This document shows, piece after piece, positions 22,999 through 52,313 of a DNA stretch of 64,000 nucleotides. This DNA is from Paratinospora sagittata (Eukaryota > Streptophyta > Magnoliopsida > Ranunculales > Menispermaceae). Position 1 is the first letter of the stretch. The number at the start of each line of letters is the position of its first letter. Below the pieces are notes generated by a model. That model saw nothing but the letters and a program-made list of their open reading frames with translations, ran no database searches and was not told the origin of the DNA. The position numbers and the translations under genes are program-made. The stretch spans positions 15,810,438-15,874,437 of the forward strand of contig CM069598.1 in assembly GCA_035771175.1 (NCBI GenBank), written 5' to 3'.

Positions 22999-23000
<2 letters not shown>

Positions 23001-23288: not shown

Positions 23289-23508
23289 ATGCTTGAGATG
23301 ATGAATGATCTCCGAAAACGTTTTTGTGGGATGAGAGAGCAAACCTCATCGTCTTCCGCAGATCATAATCTTCCACACAACTATGCAAACATCATAAAAG
23401 GAGAAGACGCAGCCACCAAGGACGGTGGTGGCGGCTCCTCATCAACACACAAAGAAGAAACCTTATTGGATCGACTTCACTCTGGGATCTTCTTAAACCA
23501 AAAGAAGA
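23289..23508 (+). pseudogene. PP2-like lectin gene, exon 1 (5' part)
   Basis: ATG 23289 opens 73 codons plus one base. The C-terminal half (PHNYANIIKG; LLDRLHSGIFLNQKK) matches the start of phloem protein 2 family proteins (PF14299), whose next residues are normally KYW. That continuation is exactly what begins at 51532 (YWIETK). PP2 proteins are phloem-sap lectins that bind chitin-type sugars and take part in defence. For the frame to join, exon 1 must end after 23508 (phase 1), but the bases there are gggc, not gt. The nearest donor-like site is GCAAGT at 23511, in the wrong phase. Most likely the first exon of the same gene as 51532-52313, now disconnected. Confidence 0.65.
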
Positions 23509-23785
23509 GGGCAAGTTTAATTTCTCTCCTTACTACCATTAATTTCATGATTCCTTTCCTTGCAAATCCAGCTTTATAATTATTATATGTACAACAAACC
23601 TAATTATAATTGTTAATAATCGGTAGCTCATTCGCATCTAACCCTCGTATAAGGTAAGGCGATTTTAAATCTTAGAGGGCCCGGTATAAGGTGAGAAGTT
23701 AGTGTGCTCTGAGTAAGGCTTGGTCTGGCCTTGTTGGTGTCGTCGTCGGCATTTGCTCTTATAAATTGACAAATATTAATTATTA

Positions 23786-24602
23786 CAAGTTTGTAGGCCC
23801 GCCCGATGGGCGGCGTTAATAAAATAATACTACTATAGACTCAATTTAGATTTACTAAAAATGCTACCCTTCTGTGTAAATAATATTAATGTTAAGAATA
23901 ATATTAACTAATTGATTAAAATATAATTATATAGCATTCATCATTTGTTGTCTATACGAATTAAAAAAAAAAATTCATCTACAATTTTTCACTATTATAG
24001 GTTGGTATAAATATTTGATAATATATATATCATTGTAACATTTTGATGAAAATTTATGATGCATGAATTTTTGTCAAACAAAAAGAAAAATCATTCTATT
24101 TCTTTTAAAGCTTCTATTAATAAAATACCATAAAATTAGATAATGTAAAATTCGTAGTCATGCATTTATTTACAACCTTTATAAGTACATAAATATGACA
24201 AAATGATGACTAACATTACATATATGATGATGCAACAACGAAATGGTTTTGGAAACTTATCACATATATAAACGAAATGAACAACTGGTCAAAGTCAAAG
24301 TCATTACATATGTTGAAGCAAGAGATAGAGAATGATTGCTGGAGAGATGAAAAGGAGGAGTGGTTGAGAAAGAAAACAAAAGAAGAAAGAGATGAAAGAA
24401 AAGAAAAAAACAAATAGTGAGAGGTATTGACAATGACATATACCAAACCGAAGGAACAATATTTTTGTTGACATTTCTCATGATATATATATATAATGAA
24501 GGTTGGGTCTCATCTATTTAAGAAACATTAACATGAAGGTATGAAGGTGGGGAGTGCGTGATATGCTGAGGATTCTTTTTTGGAGTGAGTTATTAGTTCA
24601 GA
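23786..24602 (-). mobile_element. Small non-autonomous Helitron
   Basis: On the minus strand it begins A|TCTGAACTAATAACTCACTCC at 24602 and ends with the hairpin and CTTG at 23786, giving 817 bp. Its 5' block ttggagtgagttatta (24580-24595, plus strand) is identical over 16 bp to 50946-50961 at the 5' end of the large Helitron. Its 3' subterminal 490 bp (23822-24310) are nearly identical to 35693-36183, beside the RPA gene. It therefore belongs to the same family as the Rep-helicase element. It has no coding capacity. Confidence 0.55.
23799..23813 (-). other. Helitron 3' terminal hairpin
   Basis: ccgccc-gat-gggcgg is a perfect 6-bp stem with a 3-nt loop, the sharpest GC island in its surroundings. 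Helitrons carry such a hairpin about 10-12 nt before their 3' end, where it signals rolling-circle termination. Here 13 nt separate it from the terminal CTTG on the minus strand. Confidence 0.65.
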
Positions 24603-26624
24603 TTTATGTCGGATCTTCGTCTATGTGTAGTCCGAGATATAATGATATTGTTGGGACCTTATATGAAGAAGAACTTGACATAAAGATGACAACTTGACTT
24701 AAGAAAAGAACTCTAAAAGTCTACTCTATGATCAATTTAGTGCAATAATTTGTCATTATACGGTATCACTTCTTTACTTATGTCAAGATGCTGATAGTAC
24801 TACCCTACATACTACTACTACTACCACACCTATAGTAATTTTAATATCAATTCCAATGCAACTAATACCTATATACTCGACCTATACACCAAGTTCTTTC
24901 CTCTTCTCTCAAATAAAACCCAACATACAAAAAATAATCAATGTAATTCACATACGATGCAAGTCAACCCTGTATTTGAAAAGGACATTATCATTATTCA
25001 AGTTTATATATAAGCATATAATATGATATTGATAACAATATAAGTTTTTCCATTATTCGATTGGTAACAGGAATATTTGCAATAATGCAAACTCTAGAAA
25101 TGTAGCAACACTCAAGTTAAAAAAAAAACATAATTCTTCGTTTGAATATTATATAATAGTAAGATGAAGATTAGGAGCAAAGGAAAGTCAAAATAAACGT
25201 GCCTATTATTGAGGTCAAAAAGTTATGTGAACATTATATGTAAAATAATGAATGAAACAAAATGATACAGGAAACAATAGTCTTTGAATGGAAAAATAAT
25301 ATTATTGTTCATCTTCAATATTCGCGTCCAAGATTTACAGGAAACAATTCTTCTCTTCTCTCCACAACCTAAAAAAGTTAGTACAACCCATTAGTTTATT
25401 GACTAAAATAACTTAAAAAAAACTCTAGAAACCAAAGAACAACCCTTAAAGTATTTAAAATATTTAAGAAGAATTAATGTCATCAATAAGCTTGAGGTGT
25501 TTTCATGAAGGAATTCATGTATAAACAATCAAGCAAATCCGAAACTATTTAAGTTCAAACCTAGCCAGATGAAATAAAAAACATGAATTTTCTACCAAGA
25601 TTCTAAATCTACAATTTAATCAAAGAATAAGTAATTCAAATATTCTGAAAGAAAATCCTAAATTGAAAAATCAAAAGCAAAACATTCAAGAGATGCACTA
25701 ACCTTGAATGTCTTCTTTAATGACTGAACTGTACCAAAAAAAAGAAGAAGATATTATGATTCTATAATTCTATGATAAATAACTAAGAAAATTGAGGAAG
25801 AAAGAATAAAAAATGTAGATATTAGTTATCTTCTCTCGTTGTACATGTTCAAAAGCATAGGTGACTTAGATCTCTTGTATGAAAAATACAACTGAATATA
25901 GTTTAATTGACTTAATCTGAATCTGTATTCTAATTATTTTTTTCCGACCCTATCTGCCCAAAAAGAGATTTAGATATAAAAAAAGAAAAGCTTACTTCTT
26001 CTTTTTATAGATTGAAGACTCAATCGACAAACATCCGCAGTCGCATCAATACTGTAATTCGCATTGAAGAGATGAAGAGAAGCAGTAGATGGAGATGAAG
26101 AGAAGGAATGGTTGGAAATGAAGCAAGGGATAGAGAGAGATTGCTGGAGAGATGAAAAGGGGGAGTGGTTGAGAAAGAAAACAAAAGAAGAAAGAGATGA
26201 AAGAAAACAAAAGAAGAAAGAGATGAAAGAAAAAAAAAAACAAATAGTGAGAGGTATTTACAATGACATATACCAAACTGCTCATTGGTGTGTAATTAGA
26301 AAATATAATTAATTATCACGTGACGCTTCTTTATTTAACAAATATTTATATAAATATCTGCTTCTTATTATTATTCAAAGTTTTGCAACAAACAAACACT
26401 ATATAGCTAGGTAAATTCATGCTTGAAATATATAGGTGGTTGTATGTCTTCTTCATTTAATTGTATAATATACAAAAGTAAAGTGTCATATAACATTTAT
26501 CTAATATTACATATTTTTATATTCATAGGTTATATTACATTTATACATCTATTATGAGTTATATACATATATATACATATATATATATATACACATGCAC
26601 GCACATTTAGAGGTATACATTAAT
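24603..26624. other. Non-coding; repeat of small Helitron interior at 26120-26278
   Basis: No gene supported. Positions 26120-26278 repeat 24315-24449 (shared ttgctggagagatgaaaagg and the aagaaagagatgaaag tract), showing a further copy of the Helitron's internal sequence. Minus-strand ORFs here are translations of this purine-rich repeat. The remainder is AT-rich. Confidence 0.5.
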
Positions 26625-26912
26625 TTAATATGCCCACGCATAATAATATGGTACATATGTTGAAATTACTGGCAGACCGGACTCCATAAGGTCGTGCCAA
26701 AAAACATCATACAAATTTTCAGGGTACCTAGTCTCCGCTTCGTCATCTAGAACGACTCTTATAGTAGGTCGACCAATGATGGACCAATAAATCATTAGCG
26801 TGCTTGTTTCTCTTGGAGACCAACAATAATCGAAAGTTTCATCGATTGCTGGATTAAGTAATCTATAAGAAAACTCTCTGGCCAGCATGAAGCAATTTGG
26901 GTTCTCATCCAT
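26625..26912 (-). CDS. Unknown protein, WxPxET family (copy A)
   Basis: A 95-residue ORF with ATG at 26912. I do not recognise the family. Residues about 31-62 (CWSPRETSTLMIYWSIIG, then RPTIRVVLDD) align without gaps to WNWTPQETNSLIMLWNMIG and CPIIKVVIDD in the plus-strand ORF at 33046-33429. The downstream pattern PE..(Y/F)..(F/W).. and LPV is also shared. Conservation of W, P, ET, W, IG and VV.DD across diverged copies suggests a real protein domain rather than chance. It is shorter than copy B at the N-terminus. There is no signal peptide or membrane segment. It may be one exon of a longer gene captured in the Helitron block. Confidence 0.45.
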   Translation of the reverse strand: MDENPNCFMLAREFSYRLLNPAIDETFDYCWSPRETSTLMIYWSIIGRPTIRVVLDDEAETRYPENLYDVFWHDLMESGLPVISTYVPYYYAWAY

Positions 26913-27112
26913 TTATCGAGTATTTCACGGGTGTATTGTCTGCATGTTTATCAAACATACCAAGATTAGAGTGTTTAAATGAATTGTCAGAGAAGAAACA
27001 CAAAGTCAACAAAATAGCAAATTCCTTGTTAACAAAAAGAAACATAATGAAAACAAAGTAGAAGAACAAAGAAACGTATTTGTCGATAATAGGTAGTTGA
27101 CAGGATGATACT

Positions 27113-27456
27113 TTAGTAGTTTCGTGGGTGATATGTGTTGATGATTTTTCCCGTTGTATAGTAATTGTGTAGCGTCTTTATTTGTTGAAAAACTTTCGGC
27201 ATACAAATGGGAAGAACATCCTAAAATATATAGTTTTCAACAACAATTAGTTGAGTTTCAAGAAAAGGATAAACATGCAATAATTATTGCAAATAGTTTA
27301 AGTCAAATAATATCCCGAGAGTTGAGGGATTTTGCGTCAGGTGTCATAATCCAAACTGTATTTGTTGAGTTTATAAATACCATGATAATAAAACGTTTGG
27401 CTGCTAGATTTTCTTGTCTTTTGTCAAATAAGAAATTTAATTCAAATAAAATTTGA
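27113..27456 (+). repeat. Dispersed repeat with short ORF (copy 1)
   Basis: Positions 27099-27270 recur at 48490-48607 with nearly the same bases (gacaggatgatac, ttagtagtttcgt, gtagcgtctttatttg, aaatgggaagaacatcc). The second copy lacks about 45 bp. The 100-codon ORF 27154-27456 covers this repeat and runs beyond it. It resembles no family I know and has no homologous continuation at the second site. Probably part of a transposon or captured gene. Confidence 0.4.
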
Positions 27457-28056
27457 TGTCACAGAGTCTAATGTTGTCAATTTTCTTTTCTTGTCAAATA
27501 AGATTAAATTAAAGAAGTTCTGACAACTGGAGATGACTACAGGGTTTTTATAAGGGAAAATGTTAATTTTCCATCAATATCTAAGAGAGTTGTGACACAT
27601 TGTTTTATTTTATTATAAAAGTTAAGTAATCATGTCAATCAAGTTCATAAAAAAAGTGGAAGGGCGCGTGGATGTGGATTCTGACGCATGACATCAAACA
27701 ATTATTTTTGCCATTCAACAACACGCCCCCACTGCTGGACACTCTTCTTTTTCTTCCACTCCAAACAAAGCGCACCCACTTGAGTACCCCTTTGAACTTC
27801 AAAACTTCATGATGATGAAGAGAAAGAACTTAAGGAATTGGAGGTCTAACCTAGGTTGCATAATAGCTGCAAGAGCATAACTCCTAGATCAACTTAATAG
27901 CCTCCCATGACTTTGCTTTTTTTCATTATCTCCTGCACTGTCTCTTGTTTGGACGTAATGTCATTGCCTCCAACATTTTCTTTTAGAAGAGGAGGACTTA
28001 CAAAAGTTGGAAGAGATATTTGAGCGGAACGGAAACAAATTAAGTGATTGATAAGC

Positions 28057-28956
28057 ATGGAGAAGGAGATAGTGAAGTCAAGGTTTCGAAGTGTTTGTGT
28101 GTTTTGTGGGAGTAGGGCCGGGAAAAGAGATTGTTACAGAAACGCTACTCTTGAGTTAGGTGAAGAGCTGGTAATTTATTAATGATTGTACAAACATTTT
28201 TTTATTTTGTTCCTACGACTTGTTTTCTTTGGCATGGTTTGGTTGGTGGGCTATGTCATTTGTGCCTCATTGTTTAATATTGAAGTGTGTTAATTGTTTG
28301 AAGATTTCAAGGAACTTGAACCTTGTTTATGGTGGTGCGAGTGTGGGTTTGATGGGTTTGGTTTCTCAGGCTGTTTATCAAGGTGGAGGACATGTTCTTG
28401 GGTAAGTAATATTAAGGACCAAGTACATAAAGAATCTATTTTTATCATATATTTTTCAGGAGTTTTGTTTATTTTTTGAGGCTCCTTTTTTAATTTATGT
28501 TTGTTGGTGGATTTTGTGGACAGAATTATTCCCAAAATGTTTTGTGCAAAGAGGTTTGTAATCGCATTATGCTTAAGTAAAGTCCTCATTTTACTTTTTC
28601 CTAAGTATTTTCTCATTATCATTTCATGGGATCAGATAGTTGGAGAGACAGTTGGGGAATTAAGAGTAGTAGCCGACATGCACAAAAGGAAAGCTGAAAT
28701 GGCTTGCCATTCTGATTGCTTTATTGCATTACCAGGTCCTTTGTTTCAGTTGGAATTGTTATCATTTTAATCAAAATATATTATCACATATAAGTTAACC
28801 TTCGAAAAAGGCTATAAAGGATTTCTATTTCAATAACTATACAGGTGGTTATGGGACATTGGAAGAGTTATTGGAGGTCATTAGCTGGGCGCAACTTGGG
28901 ATCCATGACAAACCTGTAAGCAAATCAAAGCCCACTGCATTCATTTATCTATCTAG

Positions 28957-28996
<40 letters not shown>

Positions 28997-29472
28997 AAAA
29001 CTCAAGCTAAGCTGGGTACGGCGCTGAACGGTCCCCCACCATCACGGTTGGATGCGTATATATAATTCATGTTTTTCCAAGCTTTACTAAGCAGTCGTAA
29101 GTAAGCTGCAGGTGGGGTTGCTTAATGTTGATGGGTACTACAATGATCTACTTACCTTCATAGATAAAGCAGTGGATGATGGGTTCATTAAAATGTCTCA
29201 GCGTCACATAGTCGTTTCGGCTCCAAATGCAAAGGAGCTCTTACAGAAACTCGAGGTTTTCTTTTCTTCAATAAATTAGTCCTTCAAGTTCGATTGTTGC
29301 TCATCAATACAAAGCATAGATATATAAAAGTAATTCACTTTGTTAAATTAGTAGACTGAATTTTGGTCTTTTTGTCCCTTTTGGTGGTTAGGACTATGTA
29401 CCCGCTCATGAGGGTGTTGTTGCCAGGGCAAGGTGGGAGGTTGTGCAAGAAGAGTTTAATGTGCCGGTGTAG
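28057..29472 (+). CDS. LOG: LOG-type cytokinin-activating enzyme, exon 3 frame problem
   Basis: Cytokinin riboside 5'-monophosphate phosphoribohydrolase releases active cytokinin bases from their nucleotides. Seven exons by family match and GT-AG sites: 28057-28170, 28304-28401, 28524-28553, 28636-28735, 28845-28915, 29112-29255, 29392-29472 (stop TAG). Conserved blocks: [28 protein letters not shown] and PGGYGTLEE (across exons 4-5), which contain the family's catalytic Arg and Glu. The spliced length is 638 nt, one short of a multiple of three. The missing base lies in exon 3, where IIPKMFCAK replaces the usual IPKTLMPRE. Retaining intron 3 (82 nt, no stop) restores the frame and gives 239 residues. 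It lies inside the Helitron-bounded block on the opposite strand to Rep-helicase, so it may be a captured copy. Intron 5 holds an AT run (28958-28992). Confidence 0.85.
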
Positions 29473-30493
29473 CCTGAAGTGGCTCTTCAATAAGTGGACC
29501 ACAGTTGAATTCTGAATGTAGCGTATATATATATCATATATTTATAGTCATGTGCTCTGTGCAAGATTTGCAATGGTCGATCTCCTCCATTTTGTGGAAA
29601 GAAATGTAAAATCTTGTTTATTTGAATAGAATTGTTGTTTGATTTGGCATGAACTCGACGTTGAATTTTATTGTCAATTACAAACAAAATTGGCTTTAAG
29701 AAAAGAGAAACAAAAACTCGAAAGTCAGTGATGTAGGGAAAGAAGTTTCGAGATTGTTTCTTCACGTATGAGGATAACGACTACTACATTGTCTTTGTGA
29801 GTATAAATATGAGTAGTGTTCAGAAGGAAATTTATCACATTCCAGTGTTCACTAGACTTTGTTCATGGGGAACATGTTTGTAAAAGTTCATCAGCTGAGG
29901 CCAAAGTTAAATTTAGAATGTATGGAGATGGAGATATATATATTTGTATAGCTAAATATGGTTTAAACAATGTAAATAAGAAAAGGGACCAACATTGACA
30001 CATTATGACAATTTATTACTTTTAACAATGAATAACTTCATATCACATGACAATACTAATGTGAGCAATTACGTCACATCATAATATATAGATTTCTCCG
30101 TTTGTACATACAATGTAGTAATCAAGTCAAAAATGTGGAGAAAACGAATTGTGGTATGCTTGAAGGTTCATTATGATTGGTGCATTAATAATTATATTAA
30201 TCTTATATTGGTATAATTGCATAGGGTTTAAAGGTGAAATATAGGTACATTATTAATTGGGTGATGTATTTATTGTTAGTATATCAAAATTATAATTAAT
30301 TTCATAGATATGGATAGATTGTAAATTGAATGCCAAAGGTGTAGATGCATTAATGGGAGAAGTATTAGTTAATAGTATATAGAGTTAGGGTAGAAAGTAT
30401 GAAAGGTCTAGATATTAGTCTTGCCGTAATTTAGTATGACATAAAAGTCATAATTGGTGTATGTTGGTTGCAAGTTGATTTGTTCATGGTGCA
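29473..30493. other. LOG 3' region and non-coding
   Basis: The first 200-300 bp are presumably LOG 3' untranslated sequence. No further gene seen; AT-rich. Confidence 0.4.
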
Positions 30494-31603
30494 GATATGA
30501 GTACCAACAATGGTGTTAACAATGAAGGCAGACTGCAAACCAACAGATGTCAAGAACATTCCATCAACTCGTCTGCAAAAAAAAATGAAAAAGACAATGT
30601 TTGTAGACACTACTGGAGGAAGTGAAACAGGGGTGGGACAAAAATGTGATGGTGGTATTCAAGCAATTTTATCGGACCATATAAACAAAGAAAAGAGAAG
30701 TGAACAATCTTTAGGTAGATCTGATTTTCTTGCATGGGTCTAGTTTAAGGGGGAATAAAGATAAGTTCGTTGACATCCCCAATGCAACGATAGAAAAATA
30801 TTTGTTGATGTCAAGAGAGGAGAAATGGGAAGAAGCTTGCCGCCATTCTTCAGAGGTAAGTGATAGAACAATTTTGGGTTTAATCATATTCACATTAAGC
30901 ATTTTTTTAAGCCAACCTATGATTTTGTTTAAACTTTTGTGTTGCTTATGTTTTTATGAAGGCAACGTTACTCTAACATATGATATTCTCAGAGTTAAAG
31001 CATGTGTTGGAGTATTCAAATCAAAATGTTCAAGTCCAAAAGAAGTTTGAGACTTTGACGAAAAAAATTAATGAAGAGGCTGAGGCCAGAGACTATCGTT
31101 CTGCTTGCATGGAAAGCTCGATAAGAGATCTGACTGAGGAGATGAGGAAAATGAGGCAAGAAAATGATAAATTACGCAAGTTATTAGCACAGGCTTGGAC
31201 AACAAAGACAGAGCTTCGACATGAGAGAGACCATTTCAAGAGTATTGCAGATGATAGTCAAGGTAAAAGCTTTTTGCCAAACATATCTTATAAGGGTTTA
31301 CCAGAGAATTCACATATTTTATCTTTAATGAAAGAAATCTACAATGCAAATCAAAATGTTGCCTTGAATACTGACAGTAACATGAATGAGAGTGCTATGG
31401 TTGGTTCGCAATTTGGTACAGGATCATCAACTACTCCAATTCCTCAGTGGACACAAATGGTAGAAGTTGATTCTCTGGGTGAAGTTTCATTTAACTTAGA
31501 TGTTAACATAGTCTCAAGTAACAATCAAGCCATACAGGTTAATGTGCCACCGCAATCTCTATTAGGTGAAAGGCTAAATGCAGATGGCGAAGCCTTGTTT
31601 TAA
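30494..31603 (+). pseudogene. Unknown coiled-coil protein gene, probably frameshifted
   Basis: Not a family I recognise. A first segment (from an ag|atatg acceptor-like site at 30494) holds short frames. Positions 30730-30855 encode LRGNKDKFVDIPNATIEKYL and REEKWEEACRHSSE, then a GTAAG donor at 30856. A second exon from about 30992 (after ttctcag) to TAA 31603 gives about 203 residues. Its first hundred (about 31010-31260) are charged with heptad-like Leu/Ile spacing (IRDLTEEMRKMRQENDKLRK), a coiled coil; the rest is polar. Near 30729-30736 the frame ending SDFLAWV-stop and the frame LHGSSLRG overlap as if one base were gained or lost. The ATIEKY motif recurs at 32996 (ATIERY), next to the WxPxET ORF. 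Confidence 0.45.
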
Positions 31604-33045
31604 AGAGTAATTGTTTAATTTAAAGAAATTCAGTTTTTTTTGTGAAGGTTGTGGTGTCTTATTTGGGTCTTGTAATAGATTTGTTTATGAATGTAATAAC
31701 TTAAGTCTATTATATTTAGTAGTTGCTTAATCAATGATCCAAAAAACAAAACTTTGTATTATTAGTATTTAATTTGTAAGACGTTGTTATGTTCATATAT
31801 CTTTCATATACATAGTATATATTTTTGTTGCATTTTATATTTATATATTCCCCGTTGTTGTAAATTACATGACAATAAATTGTTTATTGTTGCCAAAATT
31901 GATATGGGACATATAAGGTAAGGATTAAATGAAATTATAATTAGGCAATAAAATCTTTTAAGCTAAATAAGTTTCCTTTGTATCGAATCCAAGATGTAGT
32001 AGGACCCAAAGTTGAACTAAAATGTTTGATATATCATATTTTAAAGGGAAACAAAGGTCGAAAGGATAAAAATCTTTTATTAAAAATAAATGAGTATTTG
32101 AATGAGAAATTTGCTAAAGTACATTGAGAAGGAAATGAACTAAAAAAATGTTAAGGCCAAAAAAGAATGAATGACAACAAAAGTAGAAAAAATGAATAAA
32201 GGATAAATTGAATATTTAAAATGTGTGGTGTGTTTTTCTTTTGCGAAATTGTTGACGTTATATCAGACGTATATTATAATTTATAAGATTGGAGCTCATC
32301 ACAAACGTTAGACGTTTTCCCACACTTTCTTTCACCACTTAATGTGGTGGCTTCTTATAAAAGCCAAGAAGTTTTTTATGTTTTAATATATTTTGTTGGC
32401 TAACATAATCATAGCCCATGCGTAAAAAGTTATTGAAAGATTCTAACATGTTTTGTTGCTCGAGGAGACTATTGACAAAATCGACAAATGTCAGAAGATT
32501 TGTTTTACGTGAAGATCTAGATTTGGCATGCCTTTAACATTATGTCTAGGAAAAAGAGCATGGCTAAGGGTTTGTCAGTAATAAGGATATTTGTATTTGT
32601 AAAGATATAAACAAAAGAAATTGGCTTTCTTTCTATTTCTAGACCGATAGGTTATTTCTTTATCCACTTCATGTGTACCTTCTTATAAAAGCCAACTATT
32701 TGTTTAGGTTGTTTGTATTTTTTTTTTGTCTAACATGATTATAGTCAACACGGAAAAAATTCTTTACAGATTGTCAAAACTTTTGTTGTTTGAGGTGACT
32801 ATGGACAAAATCAAGAAACATCATAAGATTTTTCTGACGCGGACACGTAGATCTAGGGTATCTATAGCATTAGTTCTAGAGAAAAGATAAGGGGTAAAAG
32901 ATGAGAGAGGGTTTGTTAGTAATATAGATAACTGTAGTAGTAAAAATTGAGCGATTATAGAAATTATTTAAATCTTTATTGTGTGCCAATGTGATGCAAC
33001 GATAGAAAGGTATTTTGAAGAGCTAAGAAAGTGTTTGGGAGGTTG
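31604..33045. other. Non-coding, two diverged copies of one segment
   Basis: No gene supported. Parts 32280-32590 and 32640-32905 resemble each other (shared cttataaaagccaa, ttttgttg and gactatggacaaaatc-type words), indicating an old tandem duplication. The end, 32990-33045, carries an ATIERYFEEL-coding remnant in another frame than the ORF that follows. Confidence 0.35.
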
Positions 33046-33429
33046 ATGGCGATGAAGAATGAACAGTTTGTTCGATTTAGGTCTGGAGATGCATTTCTTG
33101 GGAGACTAACGGATCCAAATGTGAGGGATCCTTTAACGGAGCAGCTAGTTGATGATTTATATTATTATGGAATGGAACCTCGAATTATGGATGATGAGGG
33201 AAAACCATTTATGGAGTTCCATGAAGAATACGCATGGAACTGGACTCCGCAAGAAACAAACAGTTTAATAATGTTGTGGAACATGATTGGTTGCCCAATA
33301 ATAAAAGTTGTAATAGATGATGTAGCACAGCGTGGCGTACCAGAGTATGTGTTTGCTGGTTTTAGAGATGGTCTTAAACTATCTAAGTTACCTGTGTTTG
33401 TGATTCGTATATCGAACGGTGATGATTGA
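33046..33429 (+). CDS. Unknown protein, WxPxET family (copy B)
   Basis: The first ATG of the open frame is 33046, giving 127 residues to TGA 33427-33429. The family is unknown to me. It contains an acidic N-terminal half (about 1-70; EQLVDDLYYYGMEP) and then the block WNWTPQETNSLIMLWNMIG plus CPIIKVVIDD, shared with the minus-strand ORF at 26912-26625. The end LSKLPVFVIRI parallels MESGLPVIST in copy A. No signal peptide or membrane span. Both copies lie between the LOG gene and the Helitron RPA gene or just outside it, in opposite orientation. It could be a short captured gene or a domain of a host protein. Confidence 0.5.
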   Translation: MAMKNEQFVRFRSGDAFLGRLTDPNVRDPLTEQLVDDLYYYGMEPRIMDDEGKPFMEFHEEYAWNWTPQETNSLIMLWNMIGCPIIKVVIDDVAQRGVPEYVFAGFRDGLKLSKLPVFVIRISNGDD

Positions 33430-35692: not shown

Positions 35693-36183
35693 GGTAATAC
35701 TACTATAGACTCAATTTAGATTTATTAAAACTGCTAACCTTCTGTGTAAATAATATTCATGTTAAGAATAATATTAACTAATTGATTAAAATATAATTAT
35801 ATAGCGTTCATCATTTGTTGTCTATACGAATTAAAAAAAAATTCATCTATAATTTTTTCACTATTATAGGTGTGTTTAAATATTTGATCATATATATATC
35901 ATCGTAACATTTTGATGGAAATTTATGATGCATGAAATTTTGCGAAACAAAAAGAAAAATCATTCTATTTCTTTTAAAGTTTCTATTAATAAAATACCAT
36001 CAAATTACATAATGTAAAACTCATAGTCATGCATTTATTTACAACCTTTATAAGTCCATACATATGACAAAAAGACTAACATTACATATATGATGATGCA
36101 ACAACGAAATAGTTTGGAAACTTATAACATATATAAACGAAATGAACAACTGGTCAAAGTCAAAGTCATTGCATATGTTGAGT
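35693..36183 (-). repeat. Helitron 3' subterminal repeat lacking the terminal hairpin
   Basis: Nearly identical to 23822-24310 (shared taatactactatagactc, taatattaactaattgatt, tgatgatgcaacaacgaaat). In the 23.8-kb copy the next 36 bp outward hold the hairpin and CTTG end. Here that piece is absent and replaced by unrelated sequence. The repeat lies just 3' of the RPA gene on the same strand, as expected for the 3' side of the Rep-helicase element. Confidence 0.8.
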
Positions 36184-43169: not shown

Positions 43170-43702
43170 CTAAAATAGTAAATTAGTAATTATCAGCAAC
43201 ATATAATATATTAAAATATTTTGTTGTATAGCTTATCAAAAATTTGAAATCTCGTTATGGTTCTCAAGTGATTTATTATTAGAACCAAAATTTTATATAA
43301 GTAAAGTATGGTACATATTATTGCTACAAAGGTGCCACTTCTTCAGTACTAATTGAGATCCAAATTCAAATAATAAATGGAAGCAATCTGTTATGGAAAT
43401 TATACGATTAATTGATGATATTTATATAGACACTAAACGGATCAAAATCCAGTTCAATATATTTCTCTTTACTTTCTGCTTTCTACATAGTCTATTGATT
43501 TTTTTTCTTGAACTGTATACAAAGGGGACAACGATTTCTTGACACCACGATTTCTAATAAATGACTAAAAAATGAATGGCAACGATACAAAAAATAGTAA
43601 ACAAATGCAATGCTCAATAGTGATCTTTAAATCTTACAGTTGATTGTTTGGTTTGACGTCGTTGGAAGACTTGCAAGAATCAACCTGAAAATCAAAATTG
43701 CA

Positions 43703-44080
43703 TGGTACTTGTCAATACAAAGACTAAATTAGTTTAGTACTTTGTTCATAAAAATCTAAAATTTTTTGTCAATTCTAATAAGTTTCCAATTACCTGTACA
43801 ATTTTATTTCTTCTCCTTTATCTATTTTTTTAATGGAAATAAATTTTGTAGTTATTTATGACCTTGTCTCTTTGCTTTGAAGTAAACACGGGGATTGTCA
43901 AAACAAAGACGACATTAGTTTAGTACTTTGTCCATTAAAATGTAAACCTTTCGTCAATGTCTAATAAATTTCATATCATCTTGACAATTTTATTTCTTCT
44001 CCTTAATCTTTATTTTTTTTGTCGAAAATAAATTTTGTTGTTATTTATAACCTTGACTCTTTACTTTGAATTAAAACATA
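43703..44080. repeat. Tandem duplication, period about 188 bp
   Basis: Two adjacent copies (about 43703-43890 and 43893-44080) share attagtttagtactttgt, aattttatttcttctcctt and ataaattttgt in the same order. They lie upstream of Rep-helicase within the Helitron. The stretch 43170-43702 between them and the gene has nothing identifiable. Confidence 0.7.
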
Positions 44081-44109
44081 AAAGTAAGTATATAATCTTT
44101 ATAGCTGAA

Positions 44110-44426
44110 TCCATACATGTCCTCACTAATATAATAAGAAGAAAGTGATTAAATTGTATATGTAGAATTCAACAAAATTATGTACATTAACATTTAATTG
44201 ATAAACAATTTTATATGTACATTTCGCAAAATAGCCATTATTTACAATAGTAAGGGTTGCATTCAATAATAATTGGTATGATCTGATATACATCATTAAT
44301 AACTCTTTCATAAAGTTCAATCGACAAAACGTTCAATCTTTGTACCCTTGTTTTCACCATTTTTTCGAGTTCTTTAAAGAGTTTCAATGAGGAGTTTAAG
44401 CATTTAATTATCAATTTAATCATCAA
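44110..44426 (-). pseudogene. Unknown ORF, duplicated (copy 2)
   Basis: The minus-strand frame 44426-44238 encodes 62 residues, including LSIELYERVINDVYQ, then IPIIIECNPYYCK and a stop. It pairs with LSMELYERVINDVCQ and LPIIIECNLYYCK at 45085-44960. DNA similarity extends from about 44110-44360 to 44845-45085, an offset of about 737 bp. I do not recognise the family. The shared reading frame between diverged copies argues for past coding function. Confidence 0.4.
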
Positions 44427-44844
44427 TTATTGTTCTCGATCTCTGGGAGTAATTAATTTCAGTTTCTATTTCTTTCTTTTTGCAGTTTTTATTGAATTCA
44501 TTTATTCAAATAGCCTTCCATTATGTTAGATTTTCTACTCCAAAAGGCCACCATTAACTTGAAATATTTCTTTAATTATTTTCAGTTTTGAGTACCTTTT
44601 CTTTTACGTATATTATTTGTTGAGTCGTCATGTTATTTTGAGTCAATGGCCCATGGGTAGGTAGCTTAAATAATACAATACTTCAAATGCGAGGCAAATT
44701 GGATCAATATAATTGCTAAAGTTGACCAAATTATCAAAATGAATTTGGTAGATGACCATTACCAATTAACTAATAAGAGGTCAATTACTTGAGAAAAAAT
44801 ATTTATAACGTCCAGTAACAACTATATAAATCACAATAAATTAC

Positions 44845-45420
44845 CATACATGTCATCACTATTATAATCGGAAGAAATTGATTAAATTGTATATGAAAAA
44901 TTCAACAAAATTATGTACATTAACATGTAATTGATAGACAATTTTATATGTACATTTCGCCAAACCTCCAGTATTTACAATAGTAAAGGTTGCATTCAAT
45001 AATAATTGGTAAGTTTTGACATACATCATTAATAACTCTTTCATAGAGTTCCATCGACAAAGCGCCCAATCTTTGTATCTTTGTTTTCACTTCTTTTTCG
45101 AGTTTTTTTTATAGTAGCTGTAATTCGTCTTCTTGGACAGTTTTTTTTACATACAGCTGAATCTTGTATAAATAACTTCCTATGCGTAACTTTTTTCTCG
45201 CCGTGAAATTAAATCGCCAACATAAGTTTAGAATCCAACAATTTTGACTAATGTTCTCCAAGTGACCCTCATATCTACAACGTATTGGAATCAACATCCC
45301 GTCCGTAAAAAAACCTGTCCATCTTGGATTGTAGATCCCCGAACACATTTCTTCACGAATTAGTTTTTTTGGTTTATAATTTGTACCTGAAAAGCATTCA
45401 TTAATTATATAATTTTCCAT
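44845..45420 (-). pseudogene. Unknown ORF, duplicated (copy 1, longer)
   Basis: ATG 45420 opens 103 codons (GTNYKPKKLIREEMCSGIYN near the start; WRFNFTARKKLRIGSYLY near the end) to a TAA at about 45109. After that stop the same frame continues with KKLEKEVKTKIQRLGALS, matching copy 2 at 44426-44238 (KELEKMVKTRVQRLNVLS). So the original protein ran through this stop. No family recognised. It is on the same strand as Rep-helicase and upstream of it, so it is either an accessory Helitron ORF or captured host sequence. Confidence 0.4.
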
Positions 45421-45551
45421 TATGACTAACTATCATGTACTAAAGTACATATTGGATTATATAATTATTGACAGAATATACTTTAAAAATAGAGATAAAA
45501 ATCTTAAATACTTATTTACATAATCAAAGTCATTTCCCTCTTGCCCAACTT

Positions 45552-45573
45552 GGGGGGGGGGGGGGGGGGGGGG
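45552..45573. repeat. 22-base poly-G run
   Basis: An uninterrupted run of 22 G in otherwise AT-rich DNA. Capable of G-quadruplex formation; length may be uncertain because such runs are hard to sequence. Confidence 0.9.
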
Positions 45574-47187
45574 AAACAGTGTTATATACCATCTCTATCT
45601 CAGAAAAGGTTTCTCCATATTTGATGACTAACATTTATCATTTAAAAAACTACTTGAGTGAAGAGAGATTATTTACATGATGCCATGTAATTAGCGAAAA
45701 GCTATTTTGAGATGATGAGTTGATAATTTGAATATTAATATGATACATCTTTCACTTGCAGTACAAATAAATATCAAGAATTTATATGTAGTAGGGGAGT
45801 GACTATTCACAACTTACAAAAACATCCACACTATGGTAGCAAAGAAAAATGATTAAGTGATATACTCAAGTAAGACATGCATTTCTTGAAAACCATATGA
45901 TCATCTACGTTATATGTGATTTAAGAAAGTAAAATGTGACACAATGGTCATCAAATTTTTTTATCCTCTTTTTTAACTCTCGATGAGAAAGTAGGAAAAT
46001 ATTTGTTTTTCTTTTGAAAGTAATTTATGAATAATATTATATTAATTAGAGTATTGTACTACAAAATTCTTTACCTTTGAATTACATAATTGTACTGAAT
46101 CATGCATTGACACATGATTAGATGAAATTTAATAGTATTAGAGTGATATAGTGTGTATTACCCTTTTTATCACAATCAACATTACTCATAATCTATATAA
46201 TATATAATCTTTGAGATCAAGGTTTTTTTTTTTAAATGTGATAAAGAAATGTAATTATATATATATGAAAAATTAATAATTTTAAGTAATATATCTTATA
46301 TATGTACATGCGTGGATATCTTTAAGAAAATGAAAAATTAAGATTATTGAAATAGTTTGTTGTCAATTTAAAGTATGTAGTGGTGGTTGGAGGCTGGAGG
46401 GCAGATGAGGAAAGGCTGGCAAGTGACTTTGTCTTCTCTGTGAAGAGCAAGAAGTCGTGTTGAAGCGGGCTCTACTCCTTTCAAGATCAAGACTTCTTCC
46501 TAACCTTATGACACGTGTCCCTTCTCATTTGTCAACACCTTTCTTATCATTAAAACCTGTCCTTATTTCCTCCACCCCCCAAAAAAAAACCTGTTCTTCG
46601 CATATTATTATGATAATTATATGTTTTTACATTTGGTAATTTTATTATGATCATTTATCTTTGACATGTGACACAGGCATAGATCACAATATTAATCATG
46701 TTTATTAATTGTCAATAATCATGATTTAGATGAACTTAATACTTAGCAGGTCATAATGCTGCTAATTAATTGGGAGCTTGCTTTGAAAGAATTATAACAT
46801 AAACAATATAAAAAAAGACACAGAAAATAGTGCCTTACCAACTACAACTTGCTTTACTTTTTATTTTAACATAACTTTAATATAAAGGCAGACAAAATGA
46901 TATTCAGGTCTTCCATGAGATTGACAAAGATAGGCTACACATAAAGAGTAACATAGGATTCCATATACTTCGTTCATGCATTTTCTTGGATCTTCTTGTT
47001 TCTACTCTTCAGATTCTTAGTTCTAATTAATATCAAATCTAAGTTAGATTGTTTTGAGAGTTATTTGACTCTTTATTACTCCGTGGATCCCACCTCCCCG
47101 AACCTAATTATTGAAGCGTAACCTATTACACTAAACCGCGTTAAGTAACATGCCCAACTAAGCTACCGCGTTAAGTAACATACCCAA
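45574..47187. other. Non-coding
   Basis: No gene supported. 47100-47190 carries a short direct repeat (taccgcgttaagtaacat and a close copy about 35 bp earlier). Confidence 0.4.
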
Positions 47188-47277
47188 CTAAGCTCGAAGA
47201 AGCAGAGGCGCCTTCGACGCTACACTTCGCCACACAGACGTTGAAGATCGGAGGCACAGAGGAGGCGCTTTCGGCGA

Positions 47278-47391
47278 AAGTCGGGCGACACGGCCGACCG
47301 GGAACTGCAGACCGGCCTTGATCGACTTGCTGACAGACTTCTTCCGATCACCGTCGCGGCGACCTCCTTTGCCGGACCTTGTGGCTTCCAT
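47278..47391 (-). pseudogene. Histone H2A N-terminal fragment
   Basis: From ATG 47391 the minus strand encodes MEATRSGKGGRRDGDRKKS and then SVSKSIKAGLQFPVGRVAR. This is the N-terminal tail and first helix of a plant H2A. After about 38 residues the similarity ends at once (LSPKAPPL), so the remaining two thirds, including the acidic patch and docking domain, are missing. The open frame to 47188 past this point is unrelated. Its location beside TOL fragments on the other strand fits gene-fragment capture by a transposon. Confidence 0.75.
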
Positions 47392-47429
47392 TCCTGCCTT
47401 AGATCTGTTTTGCTACGCGGTACGAAACG

Positions 47430-47535
47430 CTACGATGCGAAGAGAAGTTTCGGAGAAAGTGAGCGCTTTCGGCGAGCGATTGAAGATCGGAGGCGCGGAG
47501 GTTGAGCGGAAATCATCATGTTCCTGCAATTCCAA
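47430..47535 (+). pseudogene. TOM1-like (TOL) N-terminal exon fragment, copy 1
   Basis: The plus strand reads VSEKVSAFGERLKIGGAEVE followed by RKSS, the N-terminal exon of plant TOM1-like/VHS-domain proteins (ubiquitin-cargo sorting at endosomes). Those proteins continue into a VHS domain, which is absent here. The same segment occurs again at 47642-47733, and a shorter rearranged piece (ttgaagatcggaggc, ctttcggcgaaag) is found at 47240-47280. Assignment rests on remembered family sequence. Confidence 0.55.
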
Positions 47536-47641
47536 GGTAAAAAAAACTTCCCCAAAGTTCTGATTTATTGCTCGAATTTTCGATGTTGGGATTTTGGGCC
47601 TTTTGCTGAGTAGTAGGATTTGGGAATTAGGGTTTTGAAAA

Positions 47642-47733
47642 GATGAGCGACAATCTGATGGAAAAAGTGAGCGCTTTCGGCGAGCGATTGAAGATCAGAG
47701 GCGCAGAGGTTGAGCGAAAATCATCATGTTTCT
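47642..47733 (+). pseudogene. TOM1-like (TOL) N-terminal exon fragment, copy 2
   Basis: ATG 47642 starts MSDNLMEKVSAFGERLKIR, the expected beginning of TOL1/TOL2-type proteins, then GAEVERKSSC. It retains the proper start codon that copy 1 lacks. It ends near aaatcatcatg, the same point as copy 1, and no VHS domain follows. The two copies are about 215 bp apart and differ by a few bases. Confidence 0.6.
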
Positions 47734-48489
47734 TCTTGATTGGTTCTACGGCGTTCTCACATCTCTAGGTCTATGGCAGCAGGAGCTTCAACCTCGAGGC
47801 AGTTGCTACAGTTTGCGAGTTCCAATGGGTAATCTGGAGGTTGTCTAAAGGAACTCTAAATCTTTATTAGGTTTTGCAAGAACTTTCTGGCTTTTCACTG
47901 CTGAGCACCAGTAACTCTAGTGCTCTGCTATGCCATACTTTTTTCTTTTCAAATTTATGCTTAGTGACTCAATTTCTTTGTTACTTGAAGAAGTATAATG
48001 TCAAAAGGCTGAGCTGATGGTAATTCATTGCAGATGCTCAACCGGCAGGTTGTGAAATCTGAATCTGCTTCCATAAAGGTAATTAGTCGCTTTCCAGATT
48101 GAAGCTTGAATTCTGGGGTGACTCCTTTCTCTCCTCTTATTGGCAACATCTCGTGGCATAAAAGGAGTTCCACTTCTGTTCTTCTGATTTGCAACTTTTT
48201 AAAGAAGTTCCTGCCTCTTATTTGGTGTTAACTTATTATATCTCTATGTCTATATCTTATTGTTTTTGTTGTTTGTTTGGTTTTAGTTTCGGATCGGATC
48301 TTGAGACTCCGAAGTTGACGATTTCAGGACAGATCAACCCGAGATAAGAGAGGTTGAGGTATGGATTTTTGTGTCTTTGAGGTATCTACTCTTTATAACA
48401 ATAAATCTTATCCTTCATATGCTTGGCAAGAGAATCAGAAAAAAAAAATTCATAAAGGTTAGCTATGAATGAAAACAGAAAATTTATTA
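47734..48489 (+). other. Patchwork of short gene-like pieces
   Basis: Short open pieces such as MAAGASTSRQLLQFASSNG (47773-47830) and intron-like pyrimidine stretches suggest further captured exons, but none can be assigned. GC content and codon-like structure differ from the surrounding AT-rich DNA. Confidence 0.3.
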
Positions 48490-48607
48490 AGCTGACAGGA
48501 TGATACCTTAGTAGTTTCGTAGCGTCTTTATTTGTTGAAAAACTTTCGTCATACAAATGGGAAGAACATCCTAAACTTTATTTATAGTGAGTTTCAAGAA
48601 AAAGATA
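48490..48607 (+). repeat. Dispersed repeat (copy 2 of 27099-27270)
   Basis: Same orientation as copy 1, shorter by an internal gap after ttagtagtttcgt. Both copies lie within the Helitron-bounded block, about 21 kb apart. Confidence 0.75.
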
Positions 48608-48633
48608 ACACCTGTAACATTACTTCATGGGCA

Positions 48634-48758
48634 ATAGTCAAGCAAGGCTGCTGCATCTCTCAGAGACAAAATTAGGCAGAGAAGGCTGCGGCATCTCTCA
48701 GACTTGGACAAAATTAGGCAGAAGGCATCTCTCAGACTTGACAAAATTAGGCAGAAGG
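48634..48758. repeat. Short tandem repeat, about 36-39 bp units
   Basis: Three units built on ggcatctctcagacttg and acaaaattaggcagaagg, degenerating in length. They lead directly into the larger array. Confidence 0.8.
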
Positions 48759-48759
48759 C

Positions 48760-50855
48760 AATTATTATATTATTAACTGTAGTAATATCCTCATTTTTCA
48801 ATGAATTAAATTCAAATGTTGCGGCTAACTGATATTGAATGATCTCATCTCCTTCTACTGTAATTCTCTTACCCTCTTCTTATTGTCAAAATCTAAATAC
48901 AAATGATGTTGAATAGGTTACATAACTATGGTTGTTTCTAAAAAAATATGTCATTATTAGGGAAATGAGCAAGTTGGTGTGGTCACATAGTATCTTATAT
49001 TATGTTATTTCTAGACTTATGGATGAAGAACATGTGTGCTAATAAACCAATTGGCTAACGGATATTGAATGATCTCATCTCCTTCTACTGTAATTCTCTT
49101 ACCTTCTTCTTATTGTCAAAATTATTATATTGTTAACTGTAGTAATATCCTCATTTTTCAATGAATTAAATTCAAATGTTGCGGCTAACGGATATTGAAT
49201 GATCTCATCACCTTCTACTGTAATTCTCTTACCCTCTTCTTATTGTCAAAATCTAAATACAAATGATGTTGAATAGGTTACATAACTATGGCTGTTTCTA
49301 AAAAAATATGTCATTATCAGGGAAATGAGCAAGTTGGTGTGGTCACATAGTATCTTATATTATGTTATTTCTAGACTTATGGATGAAGAACATGTGTGCT
49401 AATAAACCAATTGGCTAACGGATATTGAATGCTCTCATCTCCTTCTACTGTAATTCTCTTACCCTCTTCTTATTGTCTTATTAACTGTAGTAATATCCTC
49501 ATTTTTCAATGAATTAAATTCAAATGTTGCGGCTAACGGATATTGAATGATCTCATCTCCTTCTACTATAATTCTCTTACCCTCTTCTTATTGTCAAAAT
49601 TTAAATACAAATGATGTTGAATAGGTTACATAACTATGGCTGTTTCTAAAAAAATATGTCATTATCAGGGAAATGAGCAAGTTGGTGTGGTCACATAGTA
49701 TCTTATATTATGTTATTTCTAGACTTATGGATGAAGAACATGTGTGCTAATAAACCAATTGGCTAACGGATATTGAATGATCTCATCTCCTTCTACTGTA
49801 ATTCTCTTACCCTCTTCTTATTGTCTTATTAACTGTAGTAATATCCTCATTTTTCAATGAATTAAATTCAAATGTTGCGGCTAACGGATATTGAATGATC
49901 TCATCTCCTTCTACTGTAATTCTCTTACCCTCTTCTTATTGTCAAAATCTAAATACAAATGATGTTGAATAGGTTACATAACTATGGCTGTTTCTAAAAA
50001 AATATGTCATTATCAGGGAAATGAGCAAGTTGGTTTAAATTCAAATGTTGCAGTTAACGGATATTGAATGATCTCATCTCCTTCTACTGTAATTCTCTTA
50101 CCCTCTTCTTATTGTCAAAATCTAAATACAAATGATGTTGAATAGGTTACATAACTATGGCTGTTTCTAAAAAAATATGTCATTATCAGGGAAATGAGCA
50201 AGTTGGTGTGGTCACATAGTATCTTATATTATGTTATTTCTAGACTTATGGATAAGATCCTCATTTTTCAATGAATTAAATTCAAATGTTGCGGCTAACG
50301 AATATTGAATGATCTCATCTCCTTCTACTGTAATTCTCTTACCCTCTTCTTATTGTCAAAATCTAAATACAAATGATGTTGAATAGGTTACATAACTATG
50401 GCTGTTTCTAAAAAAATATGTCATTATCAGGGAAATGAGCAAGTTGGTGTGGTCTAAATACAAATGATGTTGAATAGGTTACATAACTATGGCTGTTTCT
50501 AAAAAAATGTCATTATCAGGGAAATGAGCAAGTTGGTGTGGTCTAAATACAAATGATGTTGAATAGGTTACATAACTATGGCTGTTTCTAAAAAAATATG
50601 TCATTATCAGGGAAATGAGCAAGTTGGTGTGGTCACATAGTATCTTATATTATGTTATTTCTAGACTTATGGATGAAGAACATGTGTGCTAATAAACCAA
50701 TTGGCTAACGGATATTGAATGATCTCATCTCCTTCTACTGTAATTCTCTTACCCTCTTCTTATTGTCAAAATTATTATATTATGAACCGTAGTAATATCC
50801 TCATTTTTCAATGAATTAAATTCAAATGTTGCGGCTAACGGATATTGAATGATCA
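48760..50855. repeat. 2.1-kb tandem array with shrinking period
   Basis: The marker gatgttgaataggttacata recurs at about 48904, 49264, 49611, 49961, 50134, 50374, 50464 and 50553. The spacing is about 360, 348, 349, 173, 240, 90 and 89 bp. Each full unit holds two copies of taacggatattgaatg followed by ctcatctccttctactgtaa. Units are very similar to each other, so the array is recent. No coding capacity. It abuts the 5' end of the Helitron, a place where many Helitrons carry tandem repeats. Confidence 0.95.
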
Positions 50856-50918
50856 GCCTAGTCTTTTTCTTTGTTTTTTGTGTCAAACATGAAGAATAAA
50901 ATGAGATAAATATTTTCG

Positions 50919-50976
50919 CTGAGGTGGCGCTCTGAGGAGGCTCCTTTGGAGTGAGTTATTAAGTATATATTATAGA
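50919..50976 (-). other. Helitron 5' terminus
   Basis: On the minus strand it reads A|TCTATAATATATAC, then taataactcactccaa, then ggagcctcctcagagcgcc. The TC start after A and the 16-bp block identical to the small Helitron's 5' end (24580-24595) support this boundary. Confidence 0.6.
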
Positions 50977-51531
50977 TATGTGCTAATATCTATGTTTACA
51001 CTTGGTAATTGATATATATAGTTGATCCTCTACTGAGGTCAATCAATTTTTAATATGGTATTAGAGCAAGTTTTATTGTAAAAGTCTAGTGTTGAAACTT
51101 CTTCGTAAGCATATTTGCTTATTCATTAACCTTGTCTTTCCTCCTTATTAAATTTAGTTTACATGCTATCGTATACGTGAAGGGAAGTGTTAATATTTAT
51201 ATTCTTGCTTGATAATTGATATATATATATATATATAGCTGGGACATCTACTTATTACTTATTAGTGATAGCTTTTAGGTCAAGGTATATCTAGCAGTAT
51301 ATAATGATCCAACATAATAAATACTATAAATTGATTACAAAAAAAAAAATGTTGGGGAGACTCAATTCTCAATATATTTTTTAACATTGTATTATGTTGT
51401 TGTGTATCTCTCACCACTTTTAAAAAGTATTTTCTCTTGTTTGATGCAAACAACATCACATCAATATGAGTTGGGATTTGTGTTAAAAAATAGAGTTGCT
51501 CTAACATTACTCGTGGTTTCCTTTTCGGCAG

Positions 51532-52313
51532 AATATTGGATCGAGACGAAGTTAAGCCTGATCAATTGCTTCATGTTGTATGCAAGGGATCTTAAAATTG
51601 CTCATGAAAACAATTTGGAGTACTGGAGTTGGCCTTGCGTAATTGAGAACAAAAGGTAAATAAATTGGTTCAAAATTTCAATGACTAATTATGAGGTACG
51701 TCATTTTCTTTAAAAAAAATTAAAATCATGAGCTACAATATCACAGTGATTTTTTTGTTAAAACATATAAATATGTACATAACTGCACTATAGATATATG
51801 TAACTTATATATCCGATGTATCAATTTAACTACACTAACCACTCTCTTAATTTCCATCTGTACGGTAAGGCACTGGTTGAAGTGGCTGAACTATTAAATG
51901 TGTGTTGGCTAGATGTATCAGGGACGTTTGAAATGTCACACCTCTCTCCTCGAACTACGTATGAGGTGATATTTGTTGTGATGTTCAAAGAAGTGAATTA
52001 CGGGTGGAAAGTTCCTGTGAATCTTCAACTTATGTTTCCCAAGGGAGAACCTGAAACTATCAATAGAACACTGAGACTATCAGAGATGCCCAAAGCAAAA
52101 TGGATAGGCCTTAGAGTGGGAGAGTTCAAGACTTTCTGTAATGACAGTAAAGGAGAAATCGAGTTCTCTCTGTTTGAGACAAAAGCTCTACAATGGAAGA
52201 AAGGACTTGTCATCAAAGGTGTTCTTATTCGCCCAAAGAAGCAACATAATGCCAACATTTTTGCATCTGCTTATCTAAATGTCAAAAATCATTTTAATTT
52301 GTCAAAGTTTTAA
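51532..52313 (+). pseudogene. PP2-like lectin gene, exons 2 and 3
   Basis: Exon 2 (51532-51655) begins YWIETKLSLINCFMLYARDL and ends at a GTAAAT donor. Exon 3 (51870-52313) reads VEVAELLNVCWLDVSGTFEM, TTYEVIFVVM, YGWKVPVNL, KWIGLRVGEF and WKKGLVIKGVLIRPKK. This is the full PF14299 lectin domain up to its usual C-terminal end, then a short tail. No first exon is found nearby; the expected one is 23289-23508. The splice phases do not match: exon 2 ends in phase 2, but the only acceptor before exon 3 (ggtaag|gcactgg) requires phase 0. Either a base has been lost or splicing differs. Domain residues themselves look well preserved, so inactivation would be fairly recent. Confidence 0.8.

What the first reader, a model, noticed from the sequence alone, without database searches (positions are those of the whole stretch)
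23289..52313. A 27-kb Helitron-bounded block sits between exon 1 and exons 2-3 of one PP2-like gene
Seen: a PP2 N-terminal exon at 23289-23508 ending in LNQKK, and at 51532 an exon starting YWIETK, the expected continuation, on the same strand and in the order of one gene. The DNA between is bounded by Helitron-like ends (A|TC at 50976; hairpin then CTTG|T at 23786, minus strand) and contains Rep-helicase and RPA genes. Removing it would leave an ordinary PP2 intron of about 0.8 kb. Inference: a giant Helitron transposed into intron 1.
Basis: partly seen in the sequence, partly recalled or inferred. Interest (0 to 1): 0.92.

Follow-up and report, generated by a model that had tools for sequence, protein, structure and literature searches.

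The report
Giant Helitron inside a PP2 intron
A 27-kilobase jumping gene of the Helitron type landed inside one intron of a plant phloem-protein gene; the same genome still holds the uninterrupted version of that site and many other copies of the giant element, which seems to have grown by running past its own lost end and picking up neighbouring DNA.

Summary
Window 23786-50976 (27,191 bp, minus strand) is one Helitron in intron 1 of a PP2-like gene. Two loci on contig C22 of the same genome (a recent duplicate pair) carry the empty site: the flanks run together there with one base substituted at the join. Removing the insert leaves an 830-bp intron. Both ends recur at many other places. A fetched C9 copy is collinear over nearly all 27 kb at 98-99%, so the block moves as one unit.

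New here: (1) it belongs to a giant, multi-copy family; junction, LOG and RepHel probes were each full length at 40 of 40 scored places, the window's own included. (2) The RepHel frame is open (1,483 aa) with HUH, two-Tyr and Walker A motifs. (3) An internal 490-bp copy of the element's own 3' region lacks the hairpin/CTTG terminator. This fits terminator loss, read-through into downstream DNA and use of a second same-family 3' end; that origin is inferred. (4) The PP2 gene is probably broken: a lost splice acceptor here, a frameshift on C22.

The parts
23289..23510 (+). PP2-like exon 1 (coding part), ending ...LNQKKR before a GC donor
   Evidence: the flank holding it is 97% identical on C22
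23766..23785 (+). left host flank ending TTATTA (insertion border, A)
23786..50976 (-). giant Helitron, 27,191 bp, 5' end at 50976 (TC), 3' end at 23786 (CTTG)
   Evidence: empty site; collinear copy on C9; ends
23786..23824 (-). 3' terminator: 6-bp stem hairpin, 13-nt spacer ending CTTG
   Evidence: 22 of 24 rows read CAAACTTG|T; 18 of 24 rows keep all six stem pairs, 6 of 24 have a mismatch; both-sided change of one pair in L034/L039 (same site) and in L048
23825..24316 (-). 3' subterminal region, distal copy
24314..24448 (+). direct repeat partner of 26119-26278; the C2 copy passes from 24448 to 26199
27159..27246 (+). stretch matching 48509-48603 of the element's 5' region: possible scrap of a second Helitron
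28480..29065 (+). LOG (cytokinin riboside phosphoribohydrolase-like) gene fragment, two exons with the stretch between them
   Evidence: Pfam PF03641 profile 24-61 and 60-86 of 131, (the name LOG is recalled, Pfam calls it possible lysine decarboxylase); 40 of 40 scored places
30977..31603 (+). coiled-coil-like ORF in the captured segment, function not identified
   Evidence: one match far below cutoff; no homologue at E<=0.001
33019..33429 (+). ORF in the captured segment, function not identified
   Evidence: no match
35695..36181 (-). internal relic of the element's own 3' subterminal region, 93% identical to 23825-24316, without hairpin or CTTG
37897..38247 (-). RPA-like gene part (DUF223); the gene's exons were not modelled
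   Evidence: PF02721 E 2.8e-10
38523..43169 (-). RepHel gene, exons 43169-42968, 42871-41495, 41395-38523 (my splice model), 1,483 aa open frame with HAH, YLFKY and GGTGKT motifs
   Evidence: a 701-bp piece at 40 of 40 scored places at 99-100%
48762..50634 (.). minisatellite arrays (348-, 173- and 91-bp units) near the 5' end, inside the element
   Evidence: repeat units also in the C9 copy
50900..50976 (-). Helitron 5' terminus
   Evidence: 20 other places at 98-100% with matches ending at query 78-87 (window 50977-50986)
50977..50996 (+). right host flank beginning TATGTG (insertion border, T)
51532..51655 (+). PP2 exon 2; one base shorter at its start than C22
51866..52313 (+). PP2 exon 3; the acceptor AG that C22 has before it reads GG here

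Best explanation
A 27,191-bp Helitron with a complete-looking RepHel gene and an RPA-like gene part inserted on the minus strand between A and T in intron 1 of a PP2-like gene. SHOWN: the borders, the empty site on C22, and recurrence of the whole block as one unit at another place (C9). INFERRED from Helitron biology: a RepHel-driven rolling-circle step, starting at the 5' TC and stopping at the 3' hairpin/CTTG. INFERRED origin of the giant form (about 0.6 likely, lower than the insertion itself): an ancestral element of about 15 kb lost its terminal hairpin, replication ran on through about 11.9 kb of downstream DNA (including a LOG gene fragment) up to the terminator of another same-family element, and the enlarged unit then multiplied.
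For: Empty site: C22 flanks contiguous with one substituted base. Aligned flank segments differ from C22 by 2.6-7.1%, while ten segments of this element differ from the C9 copy by 0.4-1.15%, as expected if the insertion came after the two PP2 loci split. C9:6041900-6069000 is collinear over window 23776-50974, apart from a variable stretch at 46.2-47.5 kb and the minisatellites. Complete 3'-LOG-junction-RepHel-5' chains at three places (C10 window, C8, C9), plus C19 and C20 with one marker missing from the capped lists. CTTG followed by T in 22 of 24 rows, with differing flanks apart from paired contigs. The internal relic lacks the hairpin; the relic/captured-DNA junction was full length at 40 of 40 scored places. 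Five of 40 hits to a terminator-plus-relic probe keep 7 more bases of the 3' end, and two of these five that I read have the same 24-base-longer junction (one base different between them), as one shared origin event would give.
Against: No short predecessor with a terminator directly on the relic was found: 0 of 40 hits covered the terminator, and three candidates proved to be ordinary distal ends. The junction remnant's resemblance to a decayed terminator is not convincing (421 of 7,420 null windows and 115 of 5,000 shuffles score as high). The 3' tetranucleotide is CTTG, not CTRR, and 6 of 24 rows have a mismatch in the hairpin stem. The source locus of the captured DNA was not found. Only one other copy was read from end to end, and its RepHel carries a stop. 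The hit lists are capped at 40 scored places and some places are the same insertion on paired contigs.
Confidence: 0.93

Rival explanations
1. Nested or tandem insertion: a second, non-autonomous Helitron of the same family (23786 to about 35694) inserted into the 3' end of a first one (from 50976), and the pair later moved together from the outer 5' end to the inner 3' end.
For: Helitron-into-Helitron insertions occur in this genome: L044 and L051 have 3' ends whose host flank resembles another copy's 5' end. A scrap of 5'-region sequence lies at 27159-27246.
Against: No second copy of the 5' terminus in the window at E<=1e-6 by self-comparison. The sequence next to the relic reads CC, not TC, on the element strand and does not resemble the family's 5' end (by eye). 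In the longer junction type, too, no such 5' end stands at the join.
Confidence: 0.25
2. The block is several independent insertions piled up in one intron rather than one element.
For: The self-comparison shows repeats, and the 3' arm varies between copies.
Against: The same order and near-complete collinearity recur on C9 with other host flanks, and the marker order recurs on C8 and C20.
Confidence: 0.02
3. Two neighbouring PP2 genes, each truncated, happen to flank a transposon-rich stretch; C22 joins them by a later deletion.
For: PP2 genes form clusters on C10 and C22.
Against: The C22 join falls at the Helitron termini and at an A|T site, and the left flank exists nowhere else but the window and C22. 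The Helitron copies are much more alike than the C10/C22 flanks.
Confidence: 0.02
4. Assembly artefact joining an unrelated 27-kb stretch.
For: Reads are not available here.
Against: Borders coincide with Helitron ends seen at many other places, and the host sequence continues collinearly with C22 on both sides.
Confidence: 0.02

Closest known systems
Plant RepHel-RPA Helitrons (canonical Helitron order)
   Same: 5' TC, 3' hairpin, A|T target without duplication, RepHel with HUH and two Tyr, RPA-like gene. Sources: PMC13286980 and PMC4683698, passages seen.
   Different: 27 kb with RepHel retained and many copies; 3' CTTG in place of CTRR; internal terminator-less 3' relic.
Helraiser/Helibat read-through products
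   Same: Hairpin as terminator; loss of the hairpin promotes bypass and capture of downstream DNA; some new 3' ends read CTTG (PMC4778049, passages seen).
   Different: Here the enlarged product keeps the old 3' subterminal sequence inside, uses a second same-family end, and has itself multiplied in a plant. This is inference from sequence, not an experiment.
Large gene-capturing maize Helitrons
   Same: Large size and captured gene fragments; up to 39 kb and nine fragments are reported (PMC6431247 passage citing Du et al. 2009).
   Different: Other captured genes; an open RepHel frame in the copy studied here. No sequence comparison with maize elements was made.
HELPO2 of Pleurotus
   Same: A Helitron family whose 3' end reads CTTG (PMC4289320 passage).
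   Different: A fungal family; no sequence relationship was tested.

Membership tests
Helitron (order) | 5' TC terminus next to host A | tested here: met
   matches from many places end at or within about 10 bases of 50976/50977
Helitron (order) | 3' CTRR terminus next to host T | tested here: not met
   reads CTTG|T in 22 of 24 rows. Host T is met; the third base is T, not R. CTTG ends are reported for Helitrons in print (HELPO2; maize and Helraiser products), so I treat this as a documented variant of the feature and still call the element a Helitron
Helitron (order) | hairpin about 10-15 nt from the 3' end | tested here: met
   6-bp stem, 13 nt from the end, -7.4 kcal/mol; all six pairs kept in 18 of 24 rows, a mismatch in 6 of 24. 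At 15 nt it is just short of the quoted 16-20
Helitron (order) | insertion between A and T without target duplication | tested here: met
   no duplicated host bases; A|T in the window, A|G in the C22 site
Helitron (order) | RepHel with HUH, two Tyr and PIF1-like helicase | tested here: met
   Pfam Helitron_like_N 158.8 bits, PIF1 292.1 bits; motifs. Activity not tested
Helitron (order) | rolling-circle transposition | not testable with these tools
   needs an activity or circular-DNA assay
plant RPA-bearing Helitrons | RPA-like gene | tested here: met
   DUF223 E 2.8e-10 at 37897-38247, a domain I read as RPA-like from recall; full gene not modelled
read-through (transduction) Helitron | old 3' end kept inside, followed by other DNA and a new 3' end | tested here: met
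   the old end lacks its last 32-39 bases
read-through (transduction) Helitron | short predecessor and donor locus of the captured DNA | tested here: inconclusive
   predecessor not found, lists capped at 40 scored places; donor locus not searched for separately, it would be hidden below the 40 places

The most novel reading that the evidence does not exclude
A Helitron lineage lost its own terminator, was rescued by capturing about 11.9 kb of DNA up to a second same-family terminator, and the resulting 27-kb element, with its own RepHel and a LOG fragment as fixed cargo, then became a successful multi-copy family: a natural counterpart of the hairpin-deletion experiment.
Probability: 0.5. Interest if true: 0.62.

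Novelty: new member of a known kind. Interest (0 to 1): 0.5.

Why it matters
Giant Helitrons are hard to prove because they leave no target duplication. Here one is fixed to the base by an empty site and a collinear second copy. The family also preserves its capture junction in two forms (with and without 24 extra bases) at dozens of places, so the read-through model of Helitron gene capture can be tested in a natural plant family, and a 27-kb Helitron with its own RepHel is shown to have spread as one unit.

Tried and rejected
Candidate short predecessors: a 61-base pattern joining terminator bases to relic-type bases gave 57 places. Of the four with 0 or 1 mismatch I read three (C1, C4, C17); all three continue into the distal 3' arm (to 25.3-25.9 kb), so they are distal ends and not predecessors. 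The other 54 places were not read for this.

Decayed-terminator idea for the longer junction: not convincing; it folds only weakly (-1.3 kcal/mol).

Homologues of the coiled-coil ORF and of the 33-kb ORF: none. The PP2 exon 3 search gave six distant plant PP2 proteins and did not name the species.

Homeolog or haplotype: substitutions between loci on paired contigs range from about 0.15% (L026/L027) through 0.7-1.7% (L004/L005, L006/L007, most of L019/L020) to about 6.6% in one piece of L019/L020, against 2.6-7.1% at the PP2 flanks. I leave open whether C22 is allelic, homeologous or paralogous.

Papers: searches (9 of 10). In one search all 10 listed papers (of 66) had zero Helitron occurrences, so I saw no paper on LOG capture by a Helitron. 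The 'giant/longest/largest Helitron' search returned two papers. Of papers I saw listings, abstract starts and passages only, no whole text.
Full report
WHAT WAS CHECKED. The window is C10:15810438-15874437 of a 1.29-Gb genome. The insert is 23786-50976, 27,191 bp, minus strand. Intron 1 is 28,021 bp with it and 830 bp without it.

EMPTY SITE. The left flank (23000-23785) has four matches in the genome: the window, two on C22 at 97%, and one 44-bp scrap on C21. On C22 the left flank ends at 7697978 and 7674512 and the right flank starts at 7697980 and 7674514, so one base lies between them: TTATTA-G-ATGTG, against TTATTA|T-ATGTG in the window. The two C22 loci are 99.9% identical to each other over 8 kb, so they are one ancestral empty site plus a later duplication, not two independent ones. 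Substitutions between window and C22 are 2.6-7.1% in the five flank segments compared, counting only strong aligned pieces.

ENDS AND COPIES. The 5' terminus matches 20 other places at 98-100%, with matches ending at query 78-87, window 50977-50986; a longer 5' query gave the same picture. The 3' query matches at 96-99% in 39 other places, 40 scored of 708 first-look candidates; matches begin at query 61-91, and 15 of 39 begin exactly at 86, the last host base of the window. The earlier starts are short runs into AT-rich host DNA. Of 30 loci scanned, 24 held the anchor motif with enough flank; 22 of 24 read CAAACTTG|T and two did not (L035, L048). In 18 of these 24 rows all six hairpin pairs are kept; 6 of 24 have one or two mismatches; both-sided changes of one pair occur in L034/L039 (the same insertion) and L048. 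Several rows are pairs on two contigs with the same host flank (L034/L039, L043/L047, L046/L054, L075/L076), so they are not all independent insertions.

ONE UNIT. C9:6041900-6069000 aligns in order with 23776-26847, 26844-30726, 30718-46160 and 47476-50974 at 98-99%; 46.2-47.5 kb is variable and the minisatellite arrangement differs. Chaining five capped hit lists (82 3' ends, 40 LOG, 40 junction, 40 RepHel, 21 5' ends) gave three complete chains including the window, two with one marker missing (C19, C20; C19 is longer, about 38 kb), six 3'-LOG-junction-RepHel chains, and many partial ones, among them 52 lone 3' ends. Partial chains may reflect list caps, truncation, nesting or non-autonomous relatives; I cannot separate these. 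LOG lies about 4.7, 2.35 or 1.3 kb from the 3' end in many of the chains, with a few other spacings. The C2 and C13 copies that I read in part lack stretches of the window's 3' arm.

GENES. RepHel: three exons by my splice model, 1,483 aa, no stop, HAH at residues 540-542, YLFKY at 675-679, GGTGKT from 1037. In the C9 copy one RepHel codon is a stop; between the two copies 19 amino-acid-changing differences (the stop included) and 8 silent ones were counted, which looks like drift in copies no longer under selection. RPA-like: DUF223 at 37897-38247. LOG: two exons covering profile positions 24-86 of 131 only, so a fragment. Two other ORFs have no identified relatives.

SECOND 3' END. Window 35695-36181 repeats 23825-24316 at 93%, but stops where the terminal 39 bases begin: no hairpin, no CTTG. 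This relic joined to captured DNA was present full length at 40 of 40 scored places, of 415 first-look candidates. A probe with the terminator placed on the relic found no place that has both, among 40 scored of 460 candidates; 35 start at the window-type junction and 5 keep 7 more terminal bases. The probe's relic is the window's own, so the list favours window-like copies. Two of those five were read and have the same longer join, 24 bases more than the window, one base different between the two. The simplest order is longer junction first, window type derived by a 24-base deletion.

MECHANISM. Shown: insertion, borders, recurrence as a unit, relic. Inferred: rolling-circle transposition, hairpin loss, read-through to a downstream same-family terminator. 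In Helraiser, capture of flanking DNA was about 11.7% of events with the intact element and at least 36% without the hairpin, and some new ends read CTTG (PMC4778049, passages). A review passage describes use of a downstream Helitron's signal as the prevailing explanation and reports maize Helitrons up to 39 kb (PMC6431247). Against: no predecessor or donor locus found, and nested insertion is not excluded.

PP2 GENE. Relative to C22, the window lacks one base at the start of exon 2 and has GG in place of the acceptor AG before exon 3; the next AG puts exon 3 out of frame. A GT four bases past the GC donor could keep exon 2 in frame. The C22 copy has its own frameshift in exon 3. Both are probably pseudogenes; whether decay came before or after the insertion is not known.

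VERDICT. Observation and main inference confirmed. Kind: Helitron, with CTTG as a documented departure from CTRR. The added interest lies in the preserved capture junction and the giant family, not in the PP2 gene.

Noticed in passing
window 3523-13289: Direct long repeats (pieces of 3523-5881 against 10682-13289, the longer ones mostly 98%) around ORFs at 6037-9945: looks like an LTR retrotransposon.
   Followed up: no
window 54778-58105: DUF4283 and weak reverse-transcriptase-like ORFs right of the PP2 gene: probably LINE-like remains.
   Followed up: no
C22:7670000-7701500 (L009, L010): Two copies of the PP2 locus about 23.5 kb apart, 99.9% identical over 8 kb: a recent duplication.
   Followed up: partly
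L044, L051: Helitron 3' ends whose host flank resembles the 5' end of another Helitron copy: insertion into or beside a relative.
   Followed up: partly
C20/C8 (L034/L039), C16/C3 (L043/L047), C2/C15 (L046/L054), C4/C17 (L075/L076): Same Helitron insertion with the same host flank on two contigs: the assembly seems to hold chromosome pairs (haplotypes or close homeologs).
   Followed up: partly
C23:25658583-25660804: 3' and 5' ends of the family only about 2.2 kb apart: a probable non-autonomous relative.
   Followed up: no
window 46160-47563: Variable stretch between the window and C9 copies, with ORFs around 47192-47563: possible further captured DNA near the 5' end.
   Followed up: no
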